A program made the position numbers and the translations under genes. Of a DNA stretch of 64,000 nucleotides, positions 1-27,600 are shown piece after piece (the stretch's first letter is position 1; every line of letters starts with the position of its first letter). Under the pieces are notes generated by a model. That model made no database searches, had not been told where the DNA came from, and worked only from the letters and a program-made list of their open reading frames with translations. Source of the DNA: Polytrichum commune (lineage: Eukaryota; Streptophyta; Polytrichopsida; Polytrichales; Polytrichaceae); NCBI GenBank assembly GCA_950295325.1, contig OX485804.1, forward strand, positions 56,346,429 to 56,410,428, given 5' to 3'.

Positions 1-104
1 NNNNNNNNNNNNNNNNNNNNNNNNNNNNNNNNNNNNNNNNNNNNNNNNNNNNNNNNNNNNNNNNNNNNNNNNNNNNNNNNNNNNNNNNNNNNNNNNNNNN
101 NNNN
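1..104. other. Assembly gap (run of N)
   Basis: All 104 bases are N. The gene that follows is already open in frame at the first called base, so its 5' part lies inside or beyond the gap. Confidence 0.99.
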
Positions 105-3299: not shown

Positions 3300-5545
3300 G
3301 TATGTGGGTAAGGCCTTGGCCAAAAATTCGGATTGTATGCTCTTGTGTGTGAGAATAAGGCCTTGGCAACAAATTTCAGATTGTCGGCTCTTGTGTGTGA
3401 GAATAAGTCCTTGGTCAAACATATCAGATTAGTGCCTTGGCCAAAAATTTCAGATTGTATGCTCTTCTATGTGAGGTTAAGGCATTGGCCAAAAAATTCA
3501 GATTGTTGGCTCTGTGTGTGAGGTTAAGGCCTTGGCCTGAAATTTGTGATTGTTAGCTCTTGTTTATGAGGTTAAGGCCTTATCCAATACTTCAGATTGT
3601 ATGCTCTTCTGTGTAAGGATAAGGCCTTGGCCACAAAATTCAGATTGTATGCTCTTGTTTGTGTTGATAAGGCCTTGGCACTAAATTCAGATTGTATGCT
3701 CTTGTGTGTGAGGATAAGGCCTTGGCCAAACATTTGTGATTGTTGGCTCTTGTGTGTGAGGATAAGTCCTTGGCCAAACATTTGTGATTGTTGGCTCTTG
3801 TGTGTGAGGTTAAGTCCTTGGCCAAACATATCAGATTAGTGGCTCTTGTGTGTGAATTTAAGGCCTTGGCCAAAAATTTGTGATTGTTAGCTCTTGTATA
3901 TAAGGTTGAGGCCTTGGCCACAAAATTCAGATTGTTGGCTCTGTGTGTGAGGTTAAGGCCTTGGCCTGAAATTTGTGATGGTTAACTCTTGTTTATGAGG
4001 TTAAGGCCTTATCCAAAACTTCAGATTGTATGCTCTTCTGTGTAAGGATAAGGCCTTGGCCACAAAATTCAGATTGTATGCTCTTGTGTGTGATGTTAAG
4101 GCCTTGGCACTAAATTCAGATTGTATGCTCTTGTGTGTGAGGATAAGGCCTTGGCCAAACATTTGTGATTGTTGGCTCTTGTGTGTGAGGTTAAGTCCTT
4201 GGCCAAACATATCAGATTAGTGGCTCTCGTGTGTGAATTTAAGGCCTTGGCCAAAAAATTTCGATTGTTAGCTCTTGTATATAAGGTTGAGGCCATGGCC
4301 ACAAAATTCAGATTGTTGGCTCTGTGTGTGAGGTTAAGGCCTTGGCCTGAAATTTGTGATTGTTAGCTCTTGTTTATGAGGTTAAGGCCTTATCCAATAC
4401 TTCAGATTGTATGCTCTTCTGTGTAAGGATAAGGCCTTGGCCACAAAATTCAGATTGTATGCTCTTGTTTGTGATGATAAGGCCTTGGCACTAAATTCAG
4501 ATTGTATGCTCTTGTGTGTAAGGATAAGGCCTTGGCCACAAAATTCAGATTGTATGCTCTTGTTTGTGATGATAAGGCCTTGGCACTAAATTCAGATTGT
4601 TGACTCTTGTGTGTGAGGATAAGGCCTTGGCCAAACATTTGTGATTGTTGGCTCTTGTGTGTGAGGATAAGGCCTTGGCCAAACATTTGTGATTGTTGGC
4701 TCTTGTGTGTGTGGTTAAGTCCTTGGCCAAACATATGGGATTAGTGGCTCTTGTGTGTGAGGTTAAGTCCTTGGCCAAACATTTGTGATTGTTGGCTCTT
4801 GTGTGTGTGGTTAAGTTCTTGGCCAAACATATGGGATTAGTGGCTCTTGTGTGTGAGGTTAAGTCCTTGGCCAAACATTTGTGATTGTTGGCTCTTGTGT
4901 GTGTGGTTAAGTCCTTGGCCAAACATATGGGATTAGTGGCTCTTGTGTGTGAGGTTAAGCCCTTGGCCAAACATTTGTGATTGTTGGCTCTTGTGTGTGT
5001 GGTTAAGTCCTTGGCCAAACATATCAGATTAGTGGCTCTTGTGTGTGAGGATAAGGCCTTGGCCAAAAATTTGTGATTGGTAGCTCTTGTATATGAGGTT
5101 GAGGCCTCGGCCACAAAATTCAAATGGTATTCTCTTGCATGTGAGGTTAAGGCCTTCGCAACCATTTCAGATTGTTGGCTATTGTGTGTGAGGTTAAGGC
5201 CTTGGCCAAAAATTTGTGTTTGTTGGCTCTTGTGTGTGAGGTTAAGGCCTTGGCCAAAAATTTGTGTTTGTTGGCTCTTGTGTGTGAGGTTAAGTCCTTG
5301 GCTAAACATATCATATTAGTGGCTCTTGTGTGTGAATTTATGGCCTTGGCCAAAAATTTGAAATTGTTAGCTCTTGTATATGAGGTTCAGGCCTTGGCCA
5401 CAAAATTGAGATGGTATGCTCTTGTATGTGAGGTTAAGGCCTTGGCAACCATTTCAGATTGTTGGCTCTTGTGTGTGAGGTTAAGGCCTTGGCCAAAAAT
5501 TTCAGATTGTATGCTCATGTATATGAGGTTAAGGCTCTTGTGAAT
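3300..5545. repeat. 48-bp minisatellite array (about 46 units) with higher-order structure
   Basis: The unit core is GGCTCTTGTGTGTGAGGTTA followed by AGGCCTTGGCCAAAAATTTG. The period is 48 bp, so several frames stay open on both strands and encode a 16-residue repeat. These frames look like a by-product of the period. A variant unit with TTCTGTGTAAGG recurs at about 3605, 4034 and 4415, giving higher-order periods of about 429 and 381 bp (nine and eight units, less 3 bp each). A more homogeneous block lies at 4600-5000. Confidence 0.9.
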
Positions 5546-7760: not shown

Positions 7761-10700
7761 ATATTAACTCTTCAAATTTAAAGTTTTGAACACCTTTCTT
7801 TTCACTTATTCAAGATTTTGTACTAAGAAACGATTTCTAATAACTTTTCATACATTTTTTAAACAATTAGTGCCGATATGAATTCCATTTAATTGGATAT
7901 TGGCCAATGAAAATATGAAAATATAGGCAATTGGCCGATTGATTTTACAAAAGACTGGCTCTTGCCAATGTAAATTGGAAAAAATCCGACCCTTCGTAGC
8001 AACTACCGGCAATTAGCCACTAAGACTTCAAAAACTTCCCGAACTTTGCTGAGGAGTAAGTCCAGACACGGACGGAATCCATTGCACTTTTGAGTTTCAA
8101 GTCGGGCTTCAACTCACTACACCTTTTTACGTATTTAGTGTCATTTTCTATATGGACTGACATTGTGCTATAACTTTTTATTATTAATATAGATCTAGTC
8201 TTTTACCAAAAAAAGAGTCAGATTGGTTGCCTGGATATTGTAGGACATTATAACATCTACTTAGTCAAATATTACACTAAAAAAAAAAAGTTTTAGTAGT
8301 GTGTAACCCCAAAAAGTAAATGACACTAAATACCATGAACGATGTAGGAGGAAGAAAGAAAGCGGGGGGGAGGGGGGAGTAACGGAACATCTCATAATGA
8401 CACGATATGGAATGAAGTCATGGTACATGAAATTTGCGCAAGCGATTATGGTTGGTGTAATCGAAATAACACCAACATGGATGTTTCAAGAGTTTTGCAG
8501 TGGGTGGCTAACATTGTTGGAGCAAGTTAGTAATTGCATGCCCACAAGTTAGTTTTTTGGGGGGCCCATGGAATAGAATTGACATAGTCCAGATTCTATA
8601 CCGAATGTGCGAATTTATTGAATGGACCTATTCTCTTGGGGGCCCATAAAATACAATCGACATAGTCTAGAATCATGGAACCGACCCACATGGCTAAATA
8701 ATGTTGTTGAGGATGTGATTGCGTAACTTATACATATTTGCTCAAGTCCATGCTACAATTGTGGTTGCCATGCAAGGAGGGCTGCCACAAGCTCTTAGAA
8801 AATTGGAGTTCACTGATCGTATCCCCATGCACCGAGTGGGGGCATAGTTGTCTGTTGGCCTAGTTGCATCTGCCATCCTCCGACTCCCACACCGAATACA
8901 ATATTTAATGGCACTAAATTCTAATTGGCTTGCTCAATACTAATTGTAAACTGCGGTATAGCGTCATGGCACTAGATCTTAACCCAACATTATTTGTCGT
9001 TACTTGTAAATTGCTTGGGGATGTTAGACTAACAGTGCTGCAATTACTGTCGCTTACTATGTGAATTTCTCATCCAAATTGCAATTATCCATGACAGTGT
9101 TTCATCACAAGTTGCTGACAAGAGAAGGTTGGGTTACGGCCCAATGGATGAACTCATCCATCGTCCATGACAATATTTGTTCACTTATTCATAAGAAGTG
9201 TCATCCAAAAAGTTACCACTGTGAAATTAAACACCACATGACACTAAATATCACATTTAGCATTGTAGTTGTGTCCGTAAGTTAGAACTCCTCGCTCGAG
9301 CCTCGTGGTTTGCGAATCACCTTCCAGACACCGCATGTGGTGGAGTGCGCTCTCCTTCCCAAGTGATGTCGAAAGTACTAATCATCTCAACTTCCAACTT
9401 CCAATTGTCCGCTATTTATTATGGCATCTCAACTACCATATTTATTAGATATCCATATACCCATGTCTTAAGTGAGCACTTACAACTGAAGCTTCACAGA
9501 GAATGCAGATTTTGCCTTCTTCCCTGGATCTATCTTTGTGCTTGTGGGCGGAGGGTTCCATTTGTGAGACAAGCTTGTTGACATGTTGTGTGAAATGGTA
9601 GACGAGATGTGTTTTGGTTCGACTACTTGTGCAATTTACATAGTCCGTTGCAAAGGCACGGAGCATTATGAGAAACTTGATGTTCACAAGGAGCTTCTCA
9701 AATTTCCCTCTAGGGAAAAGGGGAAACATGGCCTAATACCCATGCTTTAATTACATCAAGGAAAAGGGAGTTGTTTATTTCCCCTTTGAACATGTCACTT
9801 GGGAAAGCGGTGTCATTTCCACGCATGTCATATAGTCACTCACTATGAAGAGTCCAACCCCCATTAGGTTTCCAATGAAGAGTCCACCCCCCATGACATC
9901 ACGGGTAGATCACTCCATTGTCAAGTTGAACACCACATGCGACCAAAAAAAATCTTCTTTTGGTAAGTTGCACCACCAAAATGGGTCAAAATTTTATCAA
10001 ATGTTTTTCATGAGTAGATATACACAGTACCTATGACATAGTTACAAGTGGTAACTAAATTTGATGATTTGTTTTTTTCATAAAACATACCGTTTCTAAC
10101 TAGAATGACACAGAATTGAACTAAAACAATTACAAAAAAAAAAAAGACTAAAAATATAAAAAAATATAAAAAAGATACTATCAATGGTTATGTATATGTA
10201 GAAAAAATATCATAAATTTTAAAATTATATATGGCATGTAATATAGGGGTAGCAAACTTTGTCCGCACACGGTGTCAACTTGATAATGAAGTGACCTCCC
10301 CATGCATGATATACACCAAGTATGTGGTGTTGTAATGTGTGAATGATTGCCTTGACATTGTCCCCCATCCCATAACATCAAATGATATGAGGACACTTGG
10401 TGCACTTGTCACAATCACATGATGCCCGTGAAATGTTTGTATATTATTAGTGAACTATACAAAGTTTACTAAACCTTGGTATATTTGTTGTCTTGAAATA
10501 TGCCCAAGGAATGCCTATTGTAATCTTGGGATGTGGTTTGGGACCTAATTAAGGATACTAAATCATGCATTCCATACTATACACCAAGTATTTGTTGTAG
10601 TGTGTCAACAAACACTATAATATTACTCAGCCTAGCACGTCCATATCCTTTTTAAAAGGGGGAGTGGAAGGTGACTCAGAGGCTAACGTAGACGTAGGTA

Positions 10701-11800
10701 GCATGGTAGCTAGAGCAATATTTAGCTAACAATGTGTTTAGTGGCTAGCAAGCCGCAAGGGGTGGGAAGGGGGTGGATTCTTCATACCACGTAAGAATTG
10801 ATGTGAGAGTAAGAAGGGGTAATATTTGAGGCATTAGTGTACGTAGTATACACAAGGGAGAGATATTATTTTTCTCCATTGCGTACATTTAAAAAGTCCA
10901 TTAAAAATGTTGAAGTAAAGGTAAATGTACTAAAAGGGGGTAATAGATGTGTGAGTTCATCCAATTCACATTTTGGTCTATTGTTGTCATATGGTAATAG
11001 TTCTCATTGACCACATTTTCCATTCTTGTTGGGGTTTGCATTTGGGTTTTAGGGTTTTCCAAATTGGAGGGCCCAAACTCATGGGCACCCTTGAGTTTTT
11101 CTCTTTGGATTGTGGCTAAGTTATTGTGCTCTTGTCTTTGTTTGTTTATTGCAATCGATGAGTTACATGTTATGGATGGAAAAAATGTCCAATGACTTTC
11201 TCATTGAAAAGCAAAAATCAATTTCATATGTAAAAAAGGCATATTTAATTCTTGTATATGTAATGGAGGCGTTTTTCACATTAAATTGAAAAGCTTGGTA
11301 TAAATACACAAGTCCATTTTCTAGCTTGTCATGAGTACATATACATTTTTTTTCTCCTATATAGACTCCTCCTATGTAGGGTAATGATTTCATAGTGACC
11401 CATGCACGTCATTTTCGAACTAAGATCAACCCCTGGGCTTATATGAGTTGGGACTCCACATGGGATTAGACATGTCAACCATGTCAATTTGATCACTATT
11501 AAATATTGGTTTACATTTGATAACGTTTCTCCCACGTGAATTTCGCTAGCTACCGGTGGTCAATGCTATGGTGTGACCAATACTCAAGCTAAGTATACCC
11601 AAATTACAGGAGAAACCCAAAATATAACCTGACAAATTTCAAACCCCACAGAAGTTTAATCCAAAACTGTATAATATTATGACACACTTTCCACCATTCT
11701 AATGATCTTTAATGATACGAGGCACTTGGTGCACTTATCCCCATTCCATGAAGCCCTTGAAATGGTTACATATTATTAGTGTGGCTAAAGCTTGGCATAT
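7761..11800. other. Intergenic, repeat remnants, no gene supported
   Basis: No convincing coding sequence on either strand. It contains a G-run block at about 8364-8379 and a sequence at 9900-9960 resembling one end of the window's hAT-type MITE. Blocks near 10380-10560 and 11700-11910 are similar to each other and to the head of the 252-bp tandem repeat. Confidence 0.5.
9900..9960 (+). mobile_element. Possible truncated or diverged end of the 8-bp-TSD MITE
   Basis: CACGGGTAGATCACTC is identical to one terminus of the MITE at 31369. A CACCACATGCG stretch follows, as CACCACGTGCG follows that terminus. No matching opposite end (CTACCCGTG) is present nearby, so no complete element can be drawn. 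Confidence 0.4.
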
Positions 11801-12558
11801 TCAGTGCCCTAAAATATGTCCAAGTAGTACGACGTACTGTAAGGAGTGAAAGAGAGGCGACCGCACCAGTGGTTGGGGATGTGAATTAGGACGTGGTTTG
11901 GGACCTAATGAAGAAGGACGCTGAGTCATCATCGCCACCGTCAATAGATAGGCACCTCGCCATCGTGCAAGACTCCTCGGCTGCTCTGTTTTGTTGTCTT
12001 CTTCGTCTTCCTCCCTCGCACTCTTCTTCTGCACCAGTGGCAGACCGCATAGTCGGTGCCCTAAAATATGTCCAAGTAGTACGACGTACTGTAAGGAGTG
12101 AAAGAGAGGCGACCGCACCAGTGGTTGGGGATGTGAATTAGGACGTGGTTTGGGACCTAATGAAGAAGGACGCTGAGTCATCATCGCCACCGTCAATAGA
12201 TAGGCACCTCGCCATCGCGCGAGACTCCTCGGCTGCTCTGTTTTGTTGTCTTCTTCGTCTTCCTCCCTCGCACTCTTCTTCTGCACCAGTGGCAGACCGC
12301 ATAGTCGGTGCCCTAAAATATGTCCAAGTAGTACGACGTACTGTAAGGAGTGAAAGAGAGGCGACCGCACCAGTGGTTGGGGATGTGAATTAGGACGTGG
12401 TTTGGGACCTAATGAAGAAGGACGCTGAGTCATCATCGCCACCGTCAATAGATAGGCACCTCGCCATCGCGCGAGACTCCTCGGCTGCTCTGTTTTGTTG
12501 TCTTCTTCGTCTTCCCCCCTCGCACTCTTCTTCTGCACCATCTCCTGCTTCTTCCGTT
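11801..12558. repeat. 252-bp tandem repeat, three copies
   Basis: Three nearly identical units start at about 11801, 12052 and 12304. Each contains ACGACGTACTGTAAGGAG, a TTAGGACGTGGTTTGGGACC segment and a CT-rich tract. The first has a 1-nt deletion in ATGTCCAAG. Because 252 is divisible by three, long frames stay open on both strands, but the unit resembles flanking non-coding DNA and I do not treat them as genes. Confidence 0.9.
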
Positions 12559-16000: not shown

Positions 16001-17313
16001 GGAGTTCGTGGATCTTCAGTGGTGCTATACTTATTGCCCCATATTCAACTCTCCAACGCCATTGAGTTCTATTGGTACACACTTGAACGATGAGTGTGAG
16101 GAAAAAATTTGGGATCGTTTCGATTGATTCTTGTTGTCCTTTTCATTCCTTGATCCTAAGGTGAACAATTAAGACAATAGTCCTGAATGTCCTTTAAGGA
16201 ATCAAAAGGATATCTTAGATGACCCTATTCCTTCTAAATTAACTTTGTCAGTGTACTCGATATGGAGTATGAAATGTAGGTATGATCCAAAATATGCTTC
16301 ACAATACAAATCTAAGCATACCAAGCATGTGAAGTTATCCAAAAAAGTCCGTTTTCCGTTAGACGGCCAAATGTAGTACCCCAACCGTGAATGGCCCCCC
16401 TTCATTTGCATGCTTTTTGGCTACTCCACGGTGAAAACCAATGAATTTTGATGATTTTTTGTCCATAACCTTGTCCTTTAAATTGAATGTTTGGATTAAT
16501 ATTCTTTGAAGTGCCTAGAACATGAAGTAATATTTTCCATTTCTATTCTACTTGACGTATTATTGTACCAAAAAAACACAAACGAATGTAACCAAATTCA
16601 TTAGGCTAAGCCGCACGTATAGCAAAGTGTCCACATATAGCGTCGATGGAACTCTATACTACATCAATTGTGATAAGAATCAATGATGCAATCAATATAG
16701 AAATCAACCTATATGGCTTATTGTTTTTTTTAGGATTTTTTTTGCATTTTGGGCTTGCAAAATACTTGAGTCGTGTAACTTGACCATGGTAGATGAGAGT
16801 AGGATCTAAGGTTCTTGTTCTGAACACCATGCTTTATCGCTTGTATGCAGAGGCTTGTATCGCTCATTAGATTTCCTACGCTAGTCATCAATAACGATTA
16901 GTGATGCATAAAATGAGTTTTTGAATTGCATGGGAACTCCCACAAAAATACTTCCCCAACCAATATAAATGAATTGACACAAAAACATGTGGCCATGTTA
17001 TTTATGTTAGGAGAATAGGAAGGAAGGGAGATTCCATCATGAGCACAATTAGACGAGGAGTACAATTGAAACATGCTCATTTGAAGGCTTCTTTTGTGTT
17101 GGCCCACTCTCCATGTCTTTCTGAAATTTTAGGGCTTTACCTAGATCAAGAATTCTCGACTCGAATGAATTTTGCGACTGTGATTTGTAGAGGTGGTTAA
17201 AATAATTTGTACGTATTGAGTAAAATTGGGTGTATGGGATTTTGTGTATGCTTACAAAAGTCATAGAATGAGATGTTGGCAAAATTGATGTAAAATGCAG
17301 GTTTTATTCCGTC
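13050..17313. other. Intergenic, no gene recognised
   Basis: No coding region is supported. A diverged direct duplication lies at about 14870-15120, with TTCACCTAAACTNNGTNAGCGAT in both copies. A GC-richer stretch runs at 14100-14420 and 15230-15720. Open frames there lack a credible start, splice context or recognisable motif. Confidence 0.45.
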
Positions 17314-17538
17314 ATGGCCGTTGAACTTGGGCAATTCTTGTTGAAGCAAATTTCAATGCTCTGGCGGTTCATCATCACTTGCTTCGTATATTTCTTGACA
17401 CTTGTTCACAAAAAGAAACCGCATGGATGTGAGCTTTCGGATTTTTTGCAATGCATATGGAAAGAGGAAGAAATGATCAAAATGTCCGACGAGATGATCA
17501 AAATACAAACTATTGTCTGGCGAGATGATGTGTTGAAT
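17314..17538 (+). CDS. N-terminal exon of the kinase-NB-ARC-LRR gene
   Basis: It encodes 75 residues beginning MAVELGQFLLKQ, with a hydrophobic helix (about residues 14-30) and two likely amphipathic helices. With the sequence after the TIR element (KRQCTNLVDKLP..., ELRRIIQKGEALVNE) it suggests an N-terminal helical bundle ahead of the kinase. That is inference from helix-like spacing. Splicing from ACC 17541 (donor GTACTT) to an AG at 18701 also preserves frame, so the element could be an intron rather than an insertion. Confidence 0.5.
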
Positions 17539-17539
17539 A

Positions 17540-18697
17540 CCGTACTTTAAGGGCAGCTTCGGCACAAAATAATTCTAAAAATAGACGCCGAAAATTTTGG
17601 GAAATTATTGACATTTTTTGCCGAATATAAAATTAATTAATTTTCAAAATTGCCGAAAAGTAAGAAATTTTAACTTCTCACTAGAATTTTACTTACATTG
17701 GAAGCATATATGAATTATGATGGAGAGAAGGTGCTCCTTTTGTAATCAAGCTCACTTAGACTAGTCCACAAAGAATATGGGTTAAGAAGTAGCAAGACTC
17801 TAAGTGAGGCTTTTCAGATGTGTTGTACACAATTTTTTGGAGTCCAATTGAGCATAGAAGATGAAGTTTTATAGAATTTTGTCCAACTAACAAAAGTTGA
17901 GAAATCAAGTAATCTTCCACCCCCAACAAGTTTTGTGTCAAAATAAATCTTTATGCAAAAGATATGGACAAAACATTGCAGCTGTGTAAAGATCAAAAAA
18001 TTAAAATGCGTTCATAACAGTTTTTCGGAGCTCATTTGTGCATAGAAGATCAACTTTTTTGGAATTTTGTTGCTCTATGAAAAGTTTAGAAATCAAGTAA
18101 TCTTCCACCTCCAACAAGTTTTGTGTCAAAATAAGTCTTTATGCGAAAGATATGGACAAAACATTGCAGCCGTGTAAAAATCAAAAAATTAAAATGCGTT
18201 CATAACAGTTTTTCGGAGCTCATTTGTGCATAGAAGATCAACTTTTTTGGAATTTTGTTGCTCTAAGAAAAGTTTAGAAATCAAGTAATCTTTCACCTCC
18301 AACAAATTTTATGTCATTTGAAGACTCTATGCAAAAGTTATGCGTGTTATAAAAATGAAGTCTAACTAGGTGCTTCACCTCAAACTTTACATATCCCATA
18401 TGCATTGTTGAACACAACTCCACTCTACTTGTATAAAGCACAGAGCATTCTCAACTCTTTACAAAATCGTGAAAGATTTATATCTTTTGTAAAACTCTTC
18501 ACACAAATTGTGAAATCGTGTATAAACATCCTTGTTTACCGTTAGATAATAACTTCTTGGATGTATGCCGAAATTGCATTATTAAACTATTTAAAATGCC
18601 GAAATTTTTAGTAATTTTTTTTTTGCCGCCGAACACTGTTTTTTTACTTTTAATAATTATTCGGCAAGAGAGCGCCGAAGCTGCCCTTAACGTACGG
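17540..18697. mobile_element. 1158-bp TIR element with flanking TA, inside NLR coding sequence
   Basis: The left end is CCGTACTTTAAGGGCAGCTT plus CGGC. The right end is its reverse complement with one mismatch in 24. Both ends are flanked by TA (17538-17539 and 18698-18699). Subterminal GCCGAAA/TTCGGC words recur inside both ends. It has no coding capacity. TTAA lies within each terminus, so a TTAA target cannot be excluded, but the symmetry extends beyond it and favours TA. The interior holds three copies of a 188-bp tandem repeat. Confidence 0.75.
17815..18335. repeat. 188-bp tandem repeat inside the TIR element, about 2.8 copies
   Basis: GAAATCAAGTAATCTT recurs at 17901, 18089 and 18277, exactly 188 bp apart. 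The units also share an AAGATATGGACAAAACATTG segment (first two copies) and a CATAGAAGAT segment. Confidence 0.85.
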
Positions 18698-18698
18698 T

Positions 18699-20141
18699 AA
18701 GCGACAATGCACAAATCTTGTCGACAAGCTTCCTACAACCGTGCATGGTATTATTGAGATGATCACATCCATGAAGCAATCCTTCGAAGTAAGCATTGTG
18801 GTGATGGAGTTGCGTCGTATCATACAAAAAGGGGAAGCATTGGTGAACGAATGTGGGAGTGGAGATTGGTGTCGTGCAGCTCTTTTCCAATTAGACAACA
18901 AAGAGGCCTTTCGGGAACTCGTGTTTGATTTGAAGTGTTGTTGGGAGGCGGTGCATGAGATATACTCGACAAACCGTCCAAATCCAATAAATTGCACAAT
19001 GTGTAAGGATTTGAATGTGGCTACTTTAAAGGAAGTTGAAGGCGATGAACAAGACTTGCAAAAGAAACTTGAAGGTGTGCTTGAGGACTCCAAAGAGCAC
19101 ATATTAGCAAAGCAATTATTGAAGAGATTGAAATGTGACTTGCAACAAGTGAGAGGTGGAGAATTGGATGCTTTGGAAATACCTAAAGACTTTCCAAAAC
19201 CTACGCTTGTGAAACAAGTGGGTGCTGGTGCATCCGGATCAGTGTATGAATCGATATGGTTGGGATTACCAAGTGCAACAAAAACGTTGGCGGTTCCAGA
19301 GGATTGTTCTAGTTTTCGCAAAGAAGTCGGGATCTTGGCAGGATTGAGCCACCCAAACCTCATCAAATACTTTTGTTGTGGAATAGACGAAGAACATAAT
19401 GAGTTACATTTGGTGATGGAGTTGATGGACATGAGTTTGACAAAAATGTTGGAGAAGCGCAATAAGACACTCTTACCATACGTTGTTGCAATTGATGTTA
19501 TGCTTCAAATTGGAAGCGGCATGTGGTATCTTCATGACATGCATGTCGCCCATCTCGACTTAAAGCCAGACAATGTGCTTTTAAGCTTCATGACCATTGA
19601 TGGAGCAAAGGATACAAGTCCTTACCCATGCAATGTCAAATTGATCGATTATGGCACTTCCAAGTTGGAAGTTCAAAGCAAACCGCAAACACGAAAGGTT
19701 GAATATATTGTTGGTACACCAAGGTATATGGCTCCTGAGCAAATGGTCAAAAACTTAGCTTGTATGGCATGCCCTTTCCAAGCGGATGTATGGTCTTTTG
19801 CTATGACATGTTCAGAGATTCTTTCACAGAAGGTACCATTTCATGACACAAATAAAGTAAAAGAAATTCTTCCAAAAGTAAAGAAGGGTGAAAGGCCAGA
19901 GCTACCTATCAATTGTGGGGAGCTTACCAAATTGATGGAGGAATGTTGGAGGGAAGATCCCTTACAAAGGCCAACATTCTCCGATATTTGCAAGAGACTT
20001 ATAGGCTTGAAGAAAATGTTCATGAAGGGAACATATTCGAGTGATATGGTTCCCCAATTTGGTGGAGTCAAGAACTTTTCTCAAAAGATGTCAACAACAT
20101 CGAAAGGTTGCAAAGAAGAAACAAATCGTAGTACTGAGAAG
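18699..20141 (+). CDS. Kinase exon of the kinase-NB-ARC-LRR gene
   Basis: An open frame runs from the right edge of the TIR element to the donor AAG/GTACAT at 20142. The N-terminal 150 residues are helical and charged. The kinase domain spans about 19200-20020: glycine loop GAGASGSVYE (19222), a Lys in ATKTLAV, FRKEVGIL for helix C, catalytic loop HLDLKPDN (19549), DYG in place of DFG (in KLIDYGTSK, near 19648), GTPRYMAPEQM for the activation-segment end, and DVWSFAM. The RD arginine is replaced (HLD), so it is a non-RD kinase, a class often linked to plant immune signalling. Key Lys and Asp residues are present, so activity is plausible. The best family fit is a TKL-type kinase. Confidence 0.85.
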
Positions 20142-20298
20142 GTACATGCCACTTCGATTACAATGTGCTTGCTATTAAAGTTATTCTCAATTCATCTATT
20201 TCTTTGATTATATATTGTGGAAGTTTGAAGTTGAACATGCATTTTTGGTGGTAAGGTATAATAGTGTTTATTGACATATTTATGTGTTGTACATATAG

Positions 20299-21039
20299 GT
20301 GTTTGATGGAACATTGTTGAATGATCCAACGGTGGTTAGTCTCGAGAACAACCTTGCAAGAGTGAAAGATCACCTCAAAGAAGTGAATACCTTGGGTATT
20401 GTCGGCATGGGTGGAATAGGGAAGACCACATTGGCAAAGGCCATATTTGATGATACGAAGTCCACATATGATGCGTCATGCTTTGTGGGGCAATTGAAAA
20501 GTAGGAGTTTGCTTGATATCCTACGTGAAATTTTATCAAAATTTGGCGTGCACATAGAAGTTAGGAATTTAGTGCATGCGCACAAGTTGATGGAAGAATT
20601 GTTGGACGAAAAGAAGGTCCTTTTGATCTTGGACGATGTTAAGGATGAAGCTCAAGTGAATGACATTATACCAACGGTCATCTTAGATCGGAGCAAGGGG
20701 ACCACACTTATTATAACAACGCGTAATTGGGGTGCAATTAGAAATCGTGTGGGAGCGAGTGGTACAAGATTTGAAGTGAGCAAGTTAGATGATGATGCGG
20801 CAAAAACTCTCTTCAACATTCATTGTTGTTGGGAAGCATCTCATTTATCACCACAATTTAATGATATACGCGACATAATTGTGGAAGCTTGTAAGGGCTT
20901 GCCTTTGAGTTTGAAAGTCATGGGGGCATACTTACGTGGAAAAGAAAAGTTACGAAGTTGGGAACGCGCATTGCAAAGGATGAAAAGGGGAAGAAATTTG
21001 GAAAACTTGAAGGTTGTTTTTACTTTGGCAATGGCATAA
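20299..21039 (+). CDS. NB-ARC exon of the kinase-NB-ARC-LRR gene
   Basis: The exon starts after an ATATAG acceptor, in phase 0 with the kinase exon. P-loop GMGGIGKTT at 20404; kinase-2 VLLILDDV near 20618; RNBS-B-like LIITTRN near 20710; GLPL as CKGLPLSLKVMG near 20888. This is the nucleotide-binding and ARC1 part of a plant NLR switch. After WERALQRMKRGR the sequence stops matching: the frame ends at TAA 21037 and the LRR-linked frame is a different one, open from at least 20958. ARC2 with its MHD motif is not recognisable, so the nucleotide switch would be incomplete. Confidence 0.85.
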   Translation: MFDGTLLNDPTVVSLENNLARVKDHLKEVNTLGIVGMGGIGKTTLAKAIFDDTKSTYDASCFVGQLKSRSLLDILREILSKFGVHIEVRNLVHAHKLMEELLDEKKVLLILDDVKDEAQVNDIIPTVILDRSKGTTLIITTRNWGAIRNRVGASGTRFEVSKLDDDAAKTLFNIHCCWEASHLSPQFNDIRDIIVEACKGLPLSLKVMGAYLRGKEKLRSWERALQRMKRGRNLENLKVVFTLAMA

Positions 21040-21436
21040 GTCACAAGCTATGTAAGGTTCAACAAATCCAAGATGGAAGTTTGAGCTATCTTCGCCTATT
21101 GAGATTTCAAAGCATAGACATGGAGATTTCAACTGTCATCAACAACATGATGTGCATATGTACACTTCCTACACGTTCTTTCAACTTGAAATGTTTTATG
21201 ATAGACTTAAAAGAAACATTTTTTGTTGAGAGGAATTTGAGGATTTATCAAAAGAGGAGTTGGAAGCCTTGCGATAACATGAGTTTCAAAACTTGTGCAA
21301 ATCTATTAACAAATGCAGATCTCTGGAAATCTTTTGTGAAATTACAAGTATTGCAATTGCGAGGATGTCCATTCTTGAATCAAATACCCAAAGAAATGTT
21401 TTCCATCACCACTCTCATAGAGGTAGATCTATTCGG

Positions 21437-24298
21437 TTCAAATTTGACAACGATACCGGAGGGATTGGGGAACTTGAGTTCTTTGACAACCCTTGATTTG
21501 ACAGAGTGTACGAGGTTGACAACGATACCGGAGGGATTGGGGAACTTGAGTTCTTTGGAAACCCTTGATTTGACAAAGTGTACGAGCTTGACAACGATAC
21601 CGGAGGGATTGGGGAACTTGAGTTCTTTGGAAACCCTTCATTTGAGAGGGTGTGAGTGGTTGACAACGATACCGGAAGGATTGGGGAACTTGAGTTCTTT
21701 GGAAACCCTTGATTTGACAGAGTGTATGAGCTTGAAAACGATACCGGAGGGGTTGGGGAACCTGAGTTCTTTGGAAACCCTTAAACTCAGAAGGTGTACG
21801 AGCTTGGTAACAATACCGGATGGATTGGGGAACTGAGTTCTTTGACAACCCTTGATTTGAGAGGGTGTGCGAGCTTGAAAACGATACCAGAGGGGTTGGG
21901 GAACTTGAGTTCTTTGGAAACCCTTCAATTCAGAAGGTGTACGAGCTTGACAATGATACCAGAGGGATTGGGGAACTTGAGTTCTTTGACAACCCTTGAT
22001 TTGACAGAGTGTACGAGGTTGACAACATTACCGGAGGGATTGGGGAATTTGAGTTCTTTGACAACCCTTGATTTGACAGAGTGTACGAGCTTGACAACGA
22101 TACCGGAGGGGTTGGGGAACTTGAGTTCTTTGGAAACCCTTCAATTCAGAAGGTGTACGAGCTTGATAACAATACCGGAGGGGTTGGGGAACTTGAGTTC
22201 TTTGGAAACCCTTGATTTGACAGAGTGTACGAGCTTGACAACGATACCGGAGGGATTGGGGAACTTGAGTTCTTTGACAACCCTTGATTTGACAAAGTGT
22301 ACGAGCTTGACAACGATACCAGAGGGATTGGGGAACTTGAGTTCTTTGGAAACCCTTGATTTGACGGACTGTATGAGCTTGACAACCATACCAGAGGGAT
22401 TGGGGAACTTGAGTTCTTTGACAACCCTTGATTTGAGAAGGTGTGCGAGCTTGACAATGATACCGGAGGGATTGGGGATCATGAGTTTTTTGACAACCCT
22501 TGATTTGAGAGGGTGTGAGAGCTTGACAACAATACCAGAGGGGTTGGGGAACTTGAGTTCTTTGGAAACCATTCAATTCAGAAGGTGTACGAGCTTGACA
22601 ACGATACCGGACGGATTGGGGAACTTGAGTTCTTTGACAACCCTTGATTTGAGAAGGTGTGAGAGCTTGACAACGATACCGGACGGATTGGGGAACTTGA
22701 GTTCTTTGACAACCCTTGATTTGAGAAGGTGTGAGAGCTTGACAACGATACCGGAGGGATTGGGGAACTTGAGTTCTTTGACAACCTTTGATTTGAGAGG
22801 GTGTAAGAGCTTGACAAAGATACCGGAAGGACTGGGGAACTTGAGTTCTTTGGAAACCCTTGATTTGACAAAGTGTACGAGCTTGACAACGATACCGGAG
22901 GGATTGGGGAACTTGAGTTCTTTGATAGCTCTCCATTTGACAGAGTGTACGAGCTTGACAACGATACCAGAGGGGTTGGGGAACTTGAGTTCTTTGAAAA
23001 CCCTTGATTTGACAGAGTGTACGAGCTTGACAACGATATCGGAGGGATTGGGGAACTTGAGTGCTTTGGAAACCCTTGATTTAACAAAGTGTACGAGCTT
23101 GACAACGATACCGGAGGGGTTGGGGAACTTGAGTTCTTTGAAAACCCTTGATTTGACAGAGTGTACGAGCTTGACAACGATACCGGAGGGATTGGGGAAC
23201 TTGAGTTCTTTGATAGCTCTCCATTTGACAGAGTGTACGTGCTTGACAATGATACCGGAGGGGTTGGGGAACTTGAATTCTTTGGAAACCCTTGACTTGA
23301 CAAAGTATACGAGATTTACAACGATACCGGAGGGATTGGGGAACTTGACTTCTTTGATAGCTCTTCACTTGACAGAGTGTACGAGCTTGACAACAATACC
23401 GGAAGGATTGGGGAACTTGAGTTCTTTGGAAACCCTTGATTTGAGAGGGTGTGAGAGCTTGACAAAGATACCGGAAGGATTGGGGAACTTGAGTTCTTTG
23501 GAAACCCTTGATTTGACAAAGTGTACGAGCTTGAAAACGATACCGGAGGGATTGGGGAACTAGAGTTCTTTGGAAACCCTTGATTTGACAGAGTGTACGA
23601 GCTTGAGAACGATACCGGAGGGATTGGGGAACTTGAGTTCTTTGGAAACCCTTGATTTGACAAAGTGTACGAGCTTGACAACGATACCGGAGGGGTTTGG
23701 GAACTTGAGTTCTTTGGAAACCCTTCAATTCAGAAGGTGTACTAGCTTGATAATGATACCGGAGGGATTGGGGAACTTGAGTTCTTTGGAAACCCTTCAT
23801 TTGACAGAGTGTACGAGTTTGACAACGATACCGGAGGGATTGGGGAACTTGAGTTCTTTGGAAACCCTTGATTTGACAAAGTGTACGAGCTTGACAACGA
23901 TACCGGAGGGATTGGGGAACTTGAATTCTTTGATAGCTCTCCATTTGACAGAGTGTACGAGGTTGACAACGATACCGGAGGGGTTGGGGAACTTGAGTTC
24001 TTTGAAAACCTTTGAATTAAGAAGGTGTACGAGCTTGATAACGATACCGGAGGGATTGGGGAACTTGAGTTCTTTGACAATCCTTGATTTGAGAGGGTGT
24101 GAGAGCTTGACAAAGATACCGGAAGGATTGGGGAACTTGAGTTCTTTGGAAACCCTTGATTTGACAAAGTGAACGAGCTTGACAACGATACCGGAGGGAT
24201 TGGGGAACTTGAGTTCTTTGAGAACCCTTTATTTGACAAAGTGTACAAGCTTGACAATGATACCGGAGGAATTGGAGAACTTGAATTCTTTGACAATT
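21437..24298 (+). repeat. LRR-encoding array: 40 tandem 72-bp units
   Basis: Each unit encodes 24 residues of the form LxxIPEGLGNLxSLxxLxL plus a Cys-containing turn (LTECTS, RRCTS or RGCES). The word GGGATTGG or its equivalent lies at 21461 in the first unit and 24268 in the last, 2807 bp apart, or 39 x 72 minus 1. That fits 40 units with a single 1-nt deletion, seen near 21833 (GGGAACTGAGTT for GGGAACTTGAGTT). Two substitutions make stops: TAG at 23561-23563 and TGA at 24170-24172. Variant types recur in blocks, which suggests duplication of several units at a time. Long antisense frames are a by-product of the 72-bp period. Confidence 0.95.
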
Positions 24299-24328: not shown

Positions 24329-24648
24329 TAACTTATATGCATGTTGAGATCCACTTAGAATCACAGTCCGGGGAGTTTTATACAAAAATCGGTACATTTA
24401 TGATCTTTTATAAAGACATTCGGATTTTTATTTTTTTGCTCGGAAGCTACCTAAATTCAATTTTTATTCTCGGATAAAAACCGATATTTAACTTTACCAT
24501 TCGGTAAGTTTCCGACTTTGTGGATTTCATTTTGGTATGTTTTTGAATATTTGTATCGTATGTCGGATTTGTTTTTTTTAATATTGTACAAAAAATTGGT
24601 GTTATGCTTTTAAAGGGGTGAAATTGTGTTGATAGAAAATCCAAGTAT
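24329..24648. other. Intergenic, no gene seen
   Basis: AT-rich DNA with a few CGGAN words. Nothing recognisable. Confidence 0.5.
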
Positions 24649-25266
24649 CCTTGGAAGGATTTGAACCTTGCCAAGCCCCACGGGTAGGTCACTTAGTGCA
24701 TTTTAAAAACGACGTGCGGCATAATATAGAGAGGATTAAAATCATTTGAAATAAAAATTATAAAGGAATTCCAAATAATGAAGGGGCCTTTAAATGTAGA
24801 CAATCCCATTATAAGTAAGTTAGTGGACATAAAATGTGGGCCATTATTATTTTTTTAAATTAATATAGGGGCTGAAGATAAGGATCCTAGAAGGTATGTT
24901 TAGTATGTTTGCTATGGTCTCCTATGTGTTTTCTTCATAACTTTGTTTGCAATGATATTATTGTTTGCACCCTTCTTTGTTTCCATGGTTTCCCTTAACA
25001 CTCGTCAATGCGTTAGGAAGTAGATTAGCTTTTATTACTTAAAAGGAATATAGAGTACAAAAAATTACAGTGACTTGGACAATATAAGTAATGGAAGGGT
25101 GCAAACAAATGGGCCATTTTTGAAATTTAAGTAATTATAGGGAGGCTTTAATTCAGCCCTTGAAGGTAAATAGCCCCAAAACAAAAAACCCCCAGCCGCA
25201 CGTGGTGCACAAAAATGCCTTAGAGTGACCTACCCGTGCCAAGCCCCCACCAACTTGGGGCCAAGG
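24649..25266 (-). other. Second tRNA-like 50-nt fold, interrupted by a MITE
   Basis: On the minus strand, 25266-25247 joined to 24678-24649 (MITE and one target copy removed) gives 50 nt: outer stem CCTTGG/CCAAGG, D-arm-like CCCC-AAGTTGGT-GGGG, T-arm-like AAGG-TTCAAAT-CCTT. It has the same length and plan as the copy at 7711-7760, with compensating stem changes. It starts 83 bp past the stop of the hAT remnant at 25350. Confidence 0.55.
24679..25238 (+). mobile_element. MITE copy 1, 560 bp, hAT-type
   Basis: The termini are CACGGGTAGGTCACTTAG and CTAGAGTGACCTACCCGTG-like inverted repeats. The flanking 8-bp target duplication is CCAAGCCC (24671-24678 and 25239-25246). It is non-coding and inserted into the tRNA-like fold. 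Eight-base target duplications point to hAT transposition. Confidence 0.9.
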
Positions 25267-25349
25267 ATTTAGCCTTTAAAAAATAGATAAATCCAAAAAG
25301 GATTCATACATTATTTAGAGGCTAGTTAGTACAACAATACATGCAACTT

Positions 25350-27600
25350 TTAAACATCTGTATTCTCATAATTAAAATACATAGTTGAACTTACTGAACA
25401 AGATGTATCATTTGCAGAAGACACATAACGTGAAGGATTAGCATATAAAAACCGGTATTTGGTTCCAGTTTTCCATAAAAGAATTGTCTTTTCAATATTA
25501 TTATCAAAGTTTTCATCTGATCCCTCTAAAACAATTCTAAGCATAGCTTCCAAATTTTTACTTCCAAGTTTGTTTCTCACTCGCGTTTTTATTGAATTTT
25601 GAATACTAAACGCCCTTTCACAAGTGGATGTTGATACACATTATACTCTAGCCAAATCAGCAAGGACAAGCAAATTAGGATATCGGGTTTGCAAAGAATG
25701 ATTCCATGTGATCATGCCCCATAAATCTCTACAAGTCTTATCTCCCCATTCAATGGTGGCTTGCAGTTTGAAAGCTAGAAATTCACGCTTACAAGCCATC
25801 ACATTAATGAAGGAGGGAAATTTTGAACCTTCTTGGTAGCGATCATGTCCAAAGTGTTCTAGTAATTTTTCTAATTCAATCACCCCCAATTTTAGAGGCC
25901 TATCTGCCCTGAAGGCATATTAGTAGGATTTAAGATTTTAAAACATGAAATAAGATCATTGTCTATAAATCTAGCATCCAAGCCTGCACAAACAGCCTTT
26001 GCAAATGCACGTTGGAATTTAAGTGCTTCCTCAAGGTCATCTTCTAGTCTAGACCGGTCCATTTCAAAACCGTGATATATTTTTCCATGAATTTCACTTG
26101 AAAACTTTCAGAGATGACCCCCAAAAGGACCATATTCGGGAATGACATGATAACCAGTGTTTTTGTTAAATATAGAAGCATTCAAATAAATTTGCTTAAC
26201 AATAAAAAACATTCTAATTTGTGTTATATCTGTTCTAACAATGCTACCAATAGTTGTAACATCCACGAATTTGTTTTGAAAAATCTTTGATAACAAAGCT
26301 AAAGAATGTAAGATATCAGCTAGAAAATATAAAATGTAGATGTATTTTAATTATTTTAATTTGGCAAAAATAAACTTCATTTGACCAAGATTTTTTTGTC
26401 ATCACGAAAAAAACACAAAACAGATTCTAATGAATCACATAAGGTAGTCACAGCCTGCGACCTACTAAGCCATTGTATCTTATGATACCGTTTGATGGGT
26501 TTTTTAGCATAAAAAAATACTGCTTGCAAGGTTGTGAGCGCATGTTTACGTTTACTTGACATATTAAAGAAAGAAACAATTGCATTCAAAATCGTGTCAA
26601 CCTCATCATATATTACCTTGCAATTTGATGTTTTAGATGCATCAAGTGCAGCTAGATTAGTCCTATGAGCAACACAATGATAAAATAAAAAGAATGGATT
26701 TAGGTTGTTTTTTAATCTTGTTGCTACTCCACCATGGTGCTTGCACCATCACTGCCAAATGCCACACACTTGCATAAATCAAGTTTCCAATTTTTTAAGT
26801 GATTGATTAAACATTCAAAAATAATGTTAGCATTTTTTTTCCACCCTCAATGTCTAACAAATCTAAAAAGACAATGATAGGCACACATTCTTATATAATT
26901 GTAGCAAATACAACAAGGTGACCAGTAATACTTATGTCCGTAGATTCATCAATTATGATACCATAGAAAGGATAATTTTGAACCCTACATATGATTTTGT
27001 TTTTAATAACATTAGACATACATGCAATTAAATCAACATATGAATTCTCATCATGATACATAGATGCAGTGATAGGAGCCTTTATACTAGCAAGCAATAA
27101 ACACAAAGAAGGAAATTTAATATAAGAGAGGGATTGCTTTCATATAAAGTAGGCAACACGAAACAATGATGCCAATGATTCATCACATACACGTTGCCCT
27201 TGTTTGATCGCCTTCTCCAATATTTTACCACCACTTTGTAAAGCCCACAAAGTTTTTTATGTTCACTAGAACATCCATGATCATGAAATGCGCTTACCTT
27301 TAAATTATTGGATCCCTCCTTGACATAAACGGAACGCCCACCCTTCTCTTTGCAGACTTTGCAAAACATTCTCCCCAAATTGGGAGAAAAATTTAGCCAA
27401 TCAAATTGGCTATACTACTGCTCTTTCCATATACCTTCTGCACTTTGGGCTTGAGAAAAGGGATGTAAATCATCCAATGTACATGTCCCAGATGCTAAAT
27501 CACTTATGTCAATATTTCGAGGAGTGGCCAAAAATGTTCCCTTAGAGACCTCTGTCGTTTTGCCATTCCTAATTCCAAACCCACATTTCATGGTTAACAA
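25350..27600 (-). pseudogene. Decayed hAT transposase (ZNF862/DUF4371-like)
   Basis: Read on the minus strand from about 27600 it shows, in broken frames: a zinc-finger-like region (FCKVCKEKG..., HDHGCSSEHKK, near 27370-27260); a DUF4371 part with ASMYHDENS and IIIDESTDI, the first catalytic Asp (near 27050-26930); GSDGAS and an HCVAHR-like segment (near 26750-26660); and the C-terminal dimerisation region (GVIELEKLLEHFG, YPNLLVLADLA, STCERAFSIQNSIK, NKLGSKNLEAML) to TAA/TAG near 25350. Several frameshifts and stops, including one after LADLARV, show it is dead. It is the longest hAT copy here. Confidence 0.85.

What the first reader, a model, noticed from the sequence alone, without database searches (positions are those of the whole stretch)
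21437..24298. Forty exact 72-bp LRR units in one kinase-NB-ARC-LRR gene
The spacing from first to last unit is 39 x 72 minus 1, so all 40 units kept their length except for one lost base. Such uniformity implies recent expansion or ongoing homogenisation by unequal exchange. Variant types (DLTECTS, RRCES, QFRRCTS, ALHLTEC) recur in blocks, suggesting multi-unit duplications. This would change recognition surfaces quickly.
Basis: partly seen in the sequence, partly recalled or inferred. Interest (0 to 1): 0.75.

Follow-up and report, generated by a model that had tools for sequence, protein, structure and literature searches.

The report
Dead moss immune gene, reshuffling repeats
The 40 near-uniform leucine-rich repeats are real but sit in a broken copy of a moss-type immune-receptor gene; its relatives in the same genome show how such repeat arrays gain, lose and remix whole units, which could renew what the receptors recognise.

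Summary
The count is right: 40 units, first to last start 2807 bp = 39 x 72 - 1. Only length is uniform: units average 86% identity, and 2 of 780 pairs are identical. The host is a moss-type kinase-NB-ARC-LRR (PNL) gene, but a dead copy: a 1158-bp transposon in exon 1, about 595 bp lost from the NB-ARC exon onward, one 71-bp unit, stops in units 30 and 38. Block recurrence within this array is no better than shuffled order.

The genome holds at least 33 such arrays. The 26 I read have 23-92 units, and at least five genes have all three exons open. Four gene pairs with 98.0-99.1% identical kinase/NB-ARC exons share no unit order in their arrays. Three events (L035/L036, L025, L016) left an exact hybrid unit whose switch point lies mid-unit, moving 1, 25 and 7 whole units. 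Amino-acid change concentrates on the predicted concave face. The best reading is in-register unequal recombination, as in fungal hnwd receptors. Organism, expression and ligand are unknown.

The parts
17314..17539 (+). 5' part of exon 1 (starts MAVELGQFLLKQ..., alignable to paralogues)
   Evidence: Read; aligns to L009 within 16396-17539 at 97.8%. Start codon inferred from paralogues.
17540..18697 (.). Inserted 1158-bp element that splits exon 1; inverted terminal repeats beginning CCGTAC, flanked by TA on both sides; contains the 188-bp tandem repeat seen by TRF
   Evidence: Absent from L009 at this place; ends read; 39 other copies at 97-99% identity among the 40 of 621 candidates scored; TRF row 17829-18316.
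18698..20141 (+). Rest of exon 1; protein kinase domain at about 19209-19994
   Evidence: Pfam Pkinase E 8.9e-42 on ORF 18741-20207. The exon end is inferred from a GT donor and the paralogues, not tested.
20142..20298 (+). Intron between kinase and NB-ARC exons (inferred)
   Evidence: Frame change and AG|GTG acceptor; same layout in paralogues.
20299..21002 (+). Truncated NB-ARC exon (P-loop to the GLPL region; no winged helix)
   Evidence: Pfam NB-ARC profile 2-224 of 248, E 1.2e-35, no winged-helix match; intact paralogue L021 exon 2 matches PF23282 winged helix.
21000..21003 (.). Deletion junction: about 595 bp absent relative to L009 (end of NB-ARC exon, intron 2, start of exon 3), with a short shared sequence at the join
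   Evidence: BLAST blocks window 18698-21002 / L009ext 8216-10520 and window 21000-21443 / L009ext 11113-11556; sequences.
21004..21443 (+). Exon 3 upstream of the array
   Evidence: 96% identical to L009 over 444 bp.
21444..24298 (+). Array of 40 LRR units, 72 bp each except unit 6 (71 bp); the last unit is partial or degenerate
   Evidence: Pfam LRR families; AlphaFold2 model of 21794-23563, mean pLDDT 89.9, strand at residues 16-18 of each unit.
23561..23563 (+). In-frame TAG in unit 30
24170..24172 (+). In-frame TGA in unit 38
24362..27000 (.). Dispersed repeat that begins about 60 bp after the array and runs beyond 27000, with a nested element of about 560 bp at 24678-25238
   Evidence: 27 of 69 matching stretches begin at window 24354-24374 (81-94% identity); 8 other copies of the nested element at 97-99%.

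Best explanation
The array is the leucine-rich-repeat exon of a decayed member of a moss-type PNL (protein kinase-NB-ARC-LRR) gene family. In this family each 72-bp unit encodes one 24-residue LRR, and the arrays change mainly by in-register unequal recombination between units. Misaligned arrays cross over in the nearly invariant middle of the unit (about nucleotides 19-58), which adds or removes whole units, keeps the reading frame automatically, and makes a hybrid unit that joins the left half of one unit to the right half of another. Selection on working copies keeps the LRR scaffold and favours change at the exposed residues of the concave face, the presumed recognition surface. The window's copy descends from this process but is dead. 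Shown: gene architecture, lesions, family, loss of unit order, hybrid units, substitution pattern. Inferred: meiotic timing and exact pathway (crossover, conversion or slippage), receptor function, ligand binding by the concave face.
For: Architecture: Pfam kinase, NB-ARC and LRR in order; nearest named relatives among the 120 of 1308 listed are PNL proteins of Physcomitrium patens and Sphagnum. Family: at least 33 arrays; 33 of 150 scored NB-ARC matches at 78% identity or more. Turnover: kinase+NB-ARC DNA identity 99.1% (window/L009), 99.1% (L021/L024), 98.3% (L018/L019), 98.0% (L011/L012), yet 40/55, 35 (46 with the part beyond an insertion)/27, 42/51 and 33/27 units with no more shared order than shuffled arrays; controls with true duplicated blocks or a simulated copy score 48-147 against a null of about 5-8. 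L021 and L024 also share the 3' flank (96.0% over 1390 bp, 98.4% over 826 bp), so the array changed between two conserved flanks. Hybrid units: L035 unit 9 equals L036 unit 9 up to nt 46 and unit 10 from nt 19, the two arrays being otherwise identical and 72 bp different in length; L025 unit 43 joins unit 68 (left) to unit 18 (right) at the junction of a 25-unit duplication with no other difference; L016 unit 22 likewise for 7 units. Low association between left and right halves of units in the window (r2 0.40 within 3 nt, 0.05 at 10-20 nt, 0.02 beyond 40 nt). Selection: exposed positions pN/pS 0.297/0.197, other positions 0.092/0.164 in eight arrays of mostly open genes; body dN/dS 0.35-0.54 among open genes, 0.78 for window/L009 on only 20 differences. 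A toy simulation reaches the observed loss of order at about 40-80 exchanges per lineage while keeping unit diversity.
Against: No raw reads, so collapsed or expanded arrays cannot be excluded. Runs of 200 N lie beside the arrays of L010 and L033, and the window starts with 104 N; these may be scaffold gaps or withheld stretches. The cleanest 1-unit event (L035/L036) is in arrays already full of stops, and L035/L036 share only 370 bp of 5' flank. For window/L009, 3' flanks do not match (7.4 kb of L009 against the window), so replacement of the whole array from another locus is not excluded for that pair. Some pairs keep traces of order: L018/L020 (96.3% body identity) global z -3.1, L009/L010 local score 14 against null mean 6.9, maximum 14. 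L020 and L014 keep block duplicates of 2.5-2.8% divergence, so turnover is uneven. Unit-level pN/pS compares recombining paralogous units and is not a formal test.
Confidence: 0.8

Rival explanations
1. Recent expansion of this particular array: a few units were amplified recently, and exact spacing reflects youth.
For: Exact spacing apart from one base; two identical unit pairs, one of them adjacent (17/18).
Against: Mean unit divergence 13-14%; no significant periodic block structure; paralogues with 99% identical bodies have long arrays of comparable divergence; 41 exactly 24-residue units occur in the distant P. patens PNL P0121.
Confidence: 0.07
2. Arrays are exchanged as wholes between loci: a conserved 5' module (kinase-NB-ARC) is copied onto different older arrays, so body and array have separate histories.
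For: Homology of window and L009 runs 98-99.7% for over 10 kb (with gaps) up to the array and stops there; 3' flanks do not match. The 5' and 3' relationships among L018, L019, L020, L021 and L024 differ.
Against: L021/L024 share both flanks at 96-98% and still differ in array, so array change does not need a new 3' flank. Array 3' ends in the window, L013 and L021 lie at or near mobile elements or insertions, which can hide flank homology. Closest body pairs window/L009 and L021/L024 also have the most similar unit pools (nearest-unit distance 0.058 and 0.060, against 0.077 and 0.080 as the next lowest).
Confidence: 0.2
3. Assembly artefact: unit number, hybrid units and loss of order arise from misassembly of repeats.
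For: 200-N runs next to two arrays; near-identical arrays L033/L034, one ending at an N run.
Against: The window array has no N; many arrays are in frame over thousands of bases, for example 92 units without a stop in L025 and 90 in L034; collapsed reads would not give substitutions concentrated at exposed residues; arrays differ by many substitutions, not only in copy number.
Confidence: 0.07
4. The array is still expressed as part of a shortened or non-coding product (for example a decoy or small-RNA source) rather than being simply dead.
For: The kinase ORF (18741-20207) and the 589-aa LRR ORF (21794-23563) remain open.
Against: At least five independent lesions; no transcript data available here.
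Confidence: 0.06

Closest known systems
PNL (PK-NBS-LRR) class of mosses, described in Physcomitrella patens (PMC3352924, abstract and passages seen; 17 kinase-NL genes in PMC3991678, abstract and one section seen)
   Same: N-terminal protein kinase, NB-ARC, C-terminal LRR; intron between kinase and NBS with apparent phase 0 in L021. P. patens PNL P0121 also has 41 consecutive exactly 24-residue LRRs, mean aa identity 0.72.
   Different: Only 35-46% identical over the kinase/NB-ARC region to the listed P. patens proteins; a larger family (about 113 of 150 scored NB-ARC matches at 50% or more); arrays up to 92 units; the window's member is a pseudogene.
Podospora anserina hnwd / het-d, het-e NLR genes with WD40 repeats of high internal conservation (PMC2873952, PMC12222747; abstracts and passages seen)
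   Same: STAND receptors whose sensor is a tandem array of nearly uniform units; concerted evolution, unit gain and loss, novel fused units, a few hypervariable codons per unit under diversifying selection.
   Different: WD40 propeller of about 11 uniform units, not an LRR solenoid of 23-92; NACHT fungal receptors acting in allorecognition; instability shown there by experiment, here by comparison of paralogues only.
Tomato Cf-2/Cf-5 (Hcr2) receptor-like proteins with variable numbers of similar 24-aa LRRs (recalled, not checked in a call)
   Same: LRR copy-number change by intragenic unequal exchange in plant immunity genes.
   Different: Membrane receptor-like proteins without kinase or NB-ARC.
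Sea urchin LRR-type NLR with high internal conservation (mentioned in a passage of PMC12222747 citing Hibino et al. 2006)
   Same: LRR-NLR with nearly uniform repeats.
   Different: Animal NLR; not examined here.

Membership tests
PNL (kinase-NB-ARC-LRR) class | Protein kinase domain at the N-terminus | tested here: met
   Pfam PF00069 E 8.9e-42 in window ORF 18741-20207 and E 7.1e-42 in L021 exon 1.
PNL (kinase-NB-ARC-LRR) class | Complete NB-ARC with winged helix | tested here: not met
   Window: NB-ARC profile 2-224 of 248 and no winged-helix match; about 595 bp missing. Met in paralogue L021 (NB-ARC 4-247 of 248 plus PF23282). The window is therefore a decayed relative, not a working member.
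PNL (kinase-NB-ARC-LRR) class | C-terminal LRR domain | tested here: met
   Pfam LRR families; LRR solenoid model.
PNL (kinase-NB-ARC-LRR) class | Phase-0 intron between kinase and NBS (PMC3352924) | tested here: inconclusive
   Sequence of L021 fits a phase-0 GT-AG intron, but no transcript was available to confirm splicing.
PNL (kinase-NB-ARC-LRR) class | Phase-0 intron between NBS and LRR (PMC3352924) | tested here: inconclusive
   Paralogues change frame between exons 2 and 3, but the donor could not be fixed; the region is deleted in the window.
NLRs with high internal conservation (hnwd-like mode of evolution) | Units of about 80% identity or more within a gene (80-100% in hnwd, PMC12222747) | tested here: met
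   Mean nucleotide identity 0.82-0.92 in seven arrays, window 0.86; amino acid 0.73-0.86, window 0.75.
NLRs with high internal conservation (hnwd-like mode of evolution) | Units more alike within than between genes (concerted evolution) | tested here: met
   Within-array distance below between-array distance in 21 of 21 arrays.
NLRs with high internal conservation (hnwd-like mode of evolution) | Recombination makes hybrid units and changes unit number | tested here: met
   L035/L036, L025 and L016 junction units.
NLRs with high internal conservation (hnwd-like mode of evolution) | Hypervariable codons under diversifying selection | tested here: inconclusive
   pN exceeds pS at exposed positions and not elsewhere, but by counting methods on recombining units only.
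NLRs with high internal conservation (hnwd-like mode of evolution) | Length polymorphism between individuals or spontaneous array mutants | not testable with these tools
   Only one genome of this organism is held.

The most novel reading that the evidence does not exclude
Mosses run a combinatorial receptor repertoire: dozens of kinase-NB-ARC genes carry LRR arrays of up to about 90 interchangeable 24-residue modules whose order is rewritten, by recombination in the conserved core of the module, faster than roughly 1% of body divergence accumulates. New recognition surfaces would then be made largely by module shuffling rather than by point mutation, a plant LRR counterpart of the fungal WD40 hnwd system.
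Probability: 0.35. Interest if true: 0.82.

Novelty: new variant of a known kind. Interest (0 to 1): 0.55.

Why it matters
If the reading holds, a plant NLR family diversifies its sensor by unit-level recombination, with snapshots of single events still readable in one genome. Array turnover per generation would become directly measurable in a haploid organism, where every sporeling shows its array. It would also warn that short-read or collapsed assemblies misrepresent these genes, and that arrays of 70-90 LRRs, far longer than the usual NLR horseshoe, may form multi-turn solenoids. For the window itself the result is sobering: this copy is a pseudogene.

Tried and rejected
Recent expansion of the window array: tested by lag and block statistics against shuffled unit order, not supported. 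Array swapping as the only cause: suggested first, then weakened when L021 and L024 were found to share both flanks and a mobile element was found just after the window array; kept as a rival. My initial thought that high within-array diversity excludes in-place exchange was wrong: a toy simulation keeps the diversity while order is lost. Hypermutation of arrays was considered and set aside because array differences reuse variants seen in other units and the junction units are exact hybrids. Rfam and tRNA searches of the window gave nothing. The organism was not identified: the literature searches aimed at it did not settle it. In nine paper searches (open-licence library only, mostly listings seen) I found no description of such array turnover in moss PNL genes. 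The Foldseek search only confirmed a general LRR fold, with TM-scores of 0.24-0.59 among the 50 rows shown.

Full report
OBSERVATION. The window carries 40 consecutive 72-bp units at 21444-24298 on the + strand. Starts of units 1 and 40 are 2807 bp apart, exactly 39 x 72 - 1; TRF gives period 72, 39.6 copies, 87% matches. Each unit encodes one plant-type LRR, consensus LTTIPEGLGNLSSLETLDLTECTS. 'Exact' is true of length only: mean pairwise identity is 0.86 and 2 of 780 pairs are identical. There is no significant lag structure (P = 0.28) and no run of repeated units longer than 2, the shuffled mean being 2.5.

THE GENE IS BROKEN. Pfam finds kinase, NB-ARC and LRR in order, but relative to the nearest paralogue L009 (110-120 kb away on the same contig) the copy has: an insertion of 1158 bp in exon 1 (17540-18697), with inverted ends starting CCGTAC and TA on both sides, whose 39 other scored copies in the genome are 97-99% identical; about 595 bp missing from the NB-ARC exon to the start of exon 3, which removes the winged-helix part present in L021; a 71-bp unit 6; TAG in unit 30 and TGA in unit 38. 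About 60 bp after the array a dispersed repeat begins: 27 of 69 matching stretches in the genome begin at window 24354-24374, and a nested element of about 560 bp has 8 further copies at 97-99%. So the statement that this array changes recognition quickly cannot apply to this copy today. L009 itself carries one stop inside its array.

WHICH GENOME AND FAMILY. Its closest named relatives among the 120 listed of 1308 proteins are Physcomitrium patens and Sphagnum kinase-NB-ARC(-LRR) proteins (35-46% identity), and the architecture is that of the moss PNL class (PMC3352924, abstract and passages; PMC3991678, abstract and one section). Hence 'moss' is an inference. A DNA search of the genome with the array scored 33 of 214 candidates and gave 82 matching stretches, which I group into 33 arrays including this one. 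A protein search with the NB-ARC part scored 150 of 446 candidates: 33 matches at 78% identity or more and, by my count, about 113 at 50% or more. I read 26 arrays (the window, 20 loci, and L029, L033-L036); they have 23 to 92 units. In 11 of the 21 arrays every spacing is 72. All three exons are open from end to end, as stop-to-stop frames, in at least five loci: L018, L020, L024, L026 and L027; splice sites are inferred. L025 has 92 units and L034 has 90 units without a stop; only part of exon 1 of L025 was fetched. L027 runs on in frame for about 700 residues without a Pfam match.

ARRAYS LOSE THEIR UNIT ORDER WHILE THE REST STAYS 98-99% IDENTICAL. Kinase+NB-ARC DNA identity is 99.1% for window/L009 and L021/L024, 98.3% for L018/L019 and 98.0% for L011/L012. 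Identity continues through introns and upstream DNA to the first unit and falls there. Unit-by-unit alignment of the arrays scores no better than shuffled order in these four pairs: local scores 6, 5, 3 and 5 against null means of 5.2, 5.1, 3.2 and 4.3; global z 0.3, -1.5, -0.2 and 1.1. The same method gives 110 and 48 for the two halves of L025 and L020, which hold duplicated blocks, and 147 for a simulated 1-2% diverged colinear copy. Near-identical copies are colinear, as expected for very young duplicates: L033/L034 agree in 55 of 56 units and L035/L036 in all but one place. Against a complete loss, L018/L020 (body 96.3%) keep a weak global signal (z -3.1) and L009/L010 a weak local one (14 against null mean 6.9, maximum 14), and close pairs still have the most similar unit pools. 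For L021/L024 both flanks are conserved: beyond a 2.2-kb insertion in the L021 array 11 more units follow, then a 3' flank 96.0% (1390 bp) and 98.4% (826 bp) identical to that of L024. There the array changed in place. For window/L009 the 3' flanks do not match within the DNA read, so a swap of the whole array stays possible.

SINGLE EVENTS CAUGHT. (i) L035 and L036, an inverted near-identical pair, have arrays of 4846 and 4918 bp that are identical except that units 9 and 10 of L036 are one unit in L035; that unit equals unit 9 up to nt 46 and unit 10 from nt 19 on. Both arrays contain stops and broken spacing, and only 370 bp of 5' flank are shared. (ii) In L025 units 18-42 are repeated as 43-67. 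Unit 43 differs from 18 only at nt 8, 15 and 27 and from 68 only at nt 59-69; the other 24 pairs are identical. (iii) In L016 units 16-21 equal 23-28, and unit 22 differs from 15 only at nt 8-31 and from 29 only at nt 53-69, a 7-unit duplication. In all three the switch falls in the middle of the unit, where sequence is most conserved. Older blocks exist in L020 (18 units, 2.5% over the first 11) and L014 (10 units, 2.8%). Other block edges looked at (L010, L015, L023) do not show such a clean hybrid. Across arrays, best-lag P < 0.05 in 12 of 21 and longest-block P < 0.05 in 9 of 21. In the window, variants in the two halves of a unit are nearly unlinked (r2 0.40 at 1-3 nt, 0.05 at 10-20 nt, 0.02 beyond 40 nt).

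SELECTION AND SHAPE. AlphaFold2 on the open stretch 21794-23563 gives an LRR solenoid (mean pLDDT 89.9, single sequence) with a strand at residues 16-18 of each unit, so residues 15, 16, 18, 20 and 21 are the exposed positions of the concave face. In eight arrays of mostly open genes (L017, L018, L020, L021, L024, L025, L026, L027; units within 20 mismatches of the consensus) pN/pS is 0.297/0.197 there and 0.092/0.164 elsewhere; in the window 0.313/0.108 and 0.066/0.132. Not every exposed position varies (residue 16 pN 0.08 in the open set), and residue 23, outside the set, varies strongly (0.42). Kinase/NB-ARC dN/dS is 0.35-0.54 between open paralogues and 0.78 for window/L009, on 20 differences.

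MECHANISM. These facts fit in-register unequal recombination at the conserved core of the LRR unit, followed by selection. It explains uniform length without recent expansion, because every event moves whole units; frame preservation; hybrid units; weak linkage inside units; and lost order with kept diversity. A toy model of such events brings the shared-order score down to the null after about 40-80 events per lineage with unit diversity still 0.14-0.17 (model-dependent). Whether events are meiotic crossovers, conversions or replication slips is not resolved.

KNOWN RELATIVES. P. patens PNL P0121 has 41 successive exactly 24-residue LRRs with mean amino-acid identity 0.72, so uniform LRR arrays are a wider moss feature. 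The closest described mode of evolution is that of Podospora hnwd/het NLRs: units 80-100% identical, concerted evolution, unequal crossing-over, fused novel units, a few hypervariable codons (PMC2873952 and PMC12222747, abstracts and passages). The latter mentions an LRR case in a sea urchin NLR. PMC11218826 (passages) records kinase-NLRs in non-flowering plants; the passages I saw do not discuss their repeat arrays. Tomato Cf-2/Cf-5 is recalled only.

LIMITS. One genome, no reads, no transcripts, no individuals. Runs of 200 N touch two arrays (L010, L033) and 104 N open the window. Counts from genome searches are lower bounds because only some candidates were scored.

Noticed in passing
window 3434-5540: About 44 copies of a 48-bp tandem repeat (TRF score 2306), overlapping a 254-aa minus-strand ORF at 4545-5309; its nature was not examined.
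   Followed up: no
window 11795-12540: Three 252-bp tandem copies at 98% match. In the comparison with L009 the L009 stretch aligns to more than one window copy, which suggests a different copy number there.
   Followed up: partly
window 17540-18697: The 1158-bp inserted element looks like a recently active short transposon: 39 other copies at 97-99% among 40 of 621 candidates scored.
   Followed up: partly
L027 7197-9305: The LRR frame continues for about 700 residues beyond the array without any Pfam match; possibly fusion with a neighbouring or mobile-element frame.
   Followed up: partly
L010 5134-5333, L033 5518-5717, window 1-104: Runs of N beside arrays and at the window's left end: scaffold gaps or withheld stretches; a warning about assembly at these arrays.
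   Followed up: partly
G000:C6:29-37 Mb and G000:C5:32384242, C2:1269474, C2:1323032, C2:3081694: Clusters of more distant NB-ARC matches (34-38% identity), some inside single open frames of 1667-2501 residues.
   Followed up: no
L021 exon 1 and window kinase ORF: The kinase reads HLD and DYG where HRD and DFG are usual (motifs recalled; sequences). P. patens relatives such as P0007 read HRD and DFG.
   Followed up: no
L033/L034 unit 44: The two otherwise identical arrays differ at 3 nt in one unit; each version equals other units of the same array exactly, like a short conversion or an assembly choice.
   Followed up: partly
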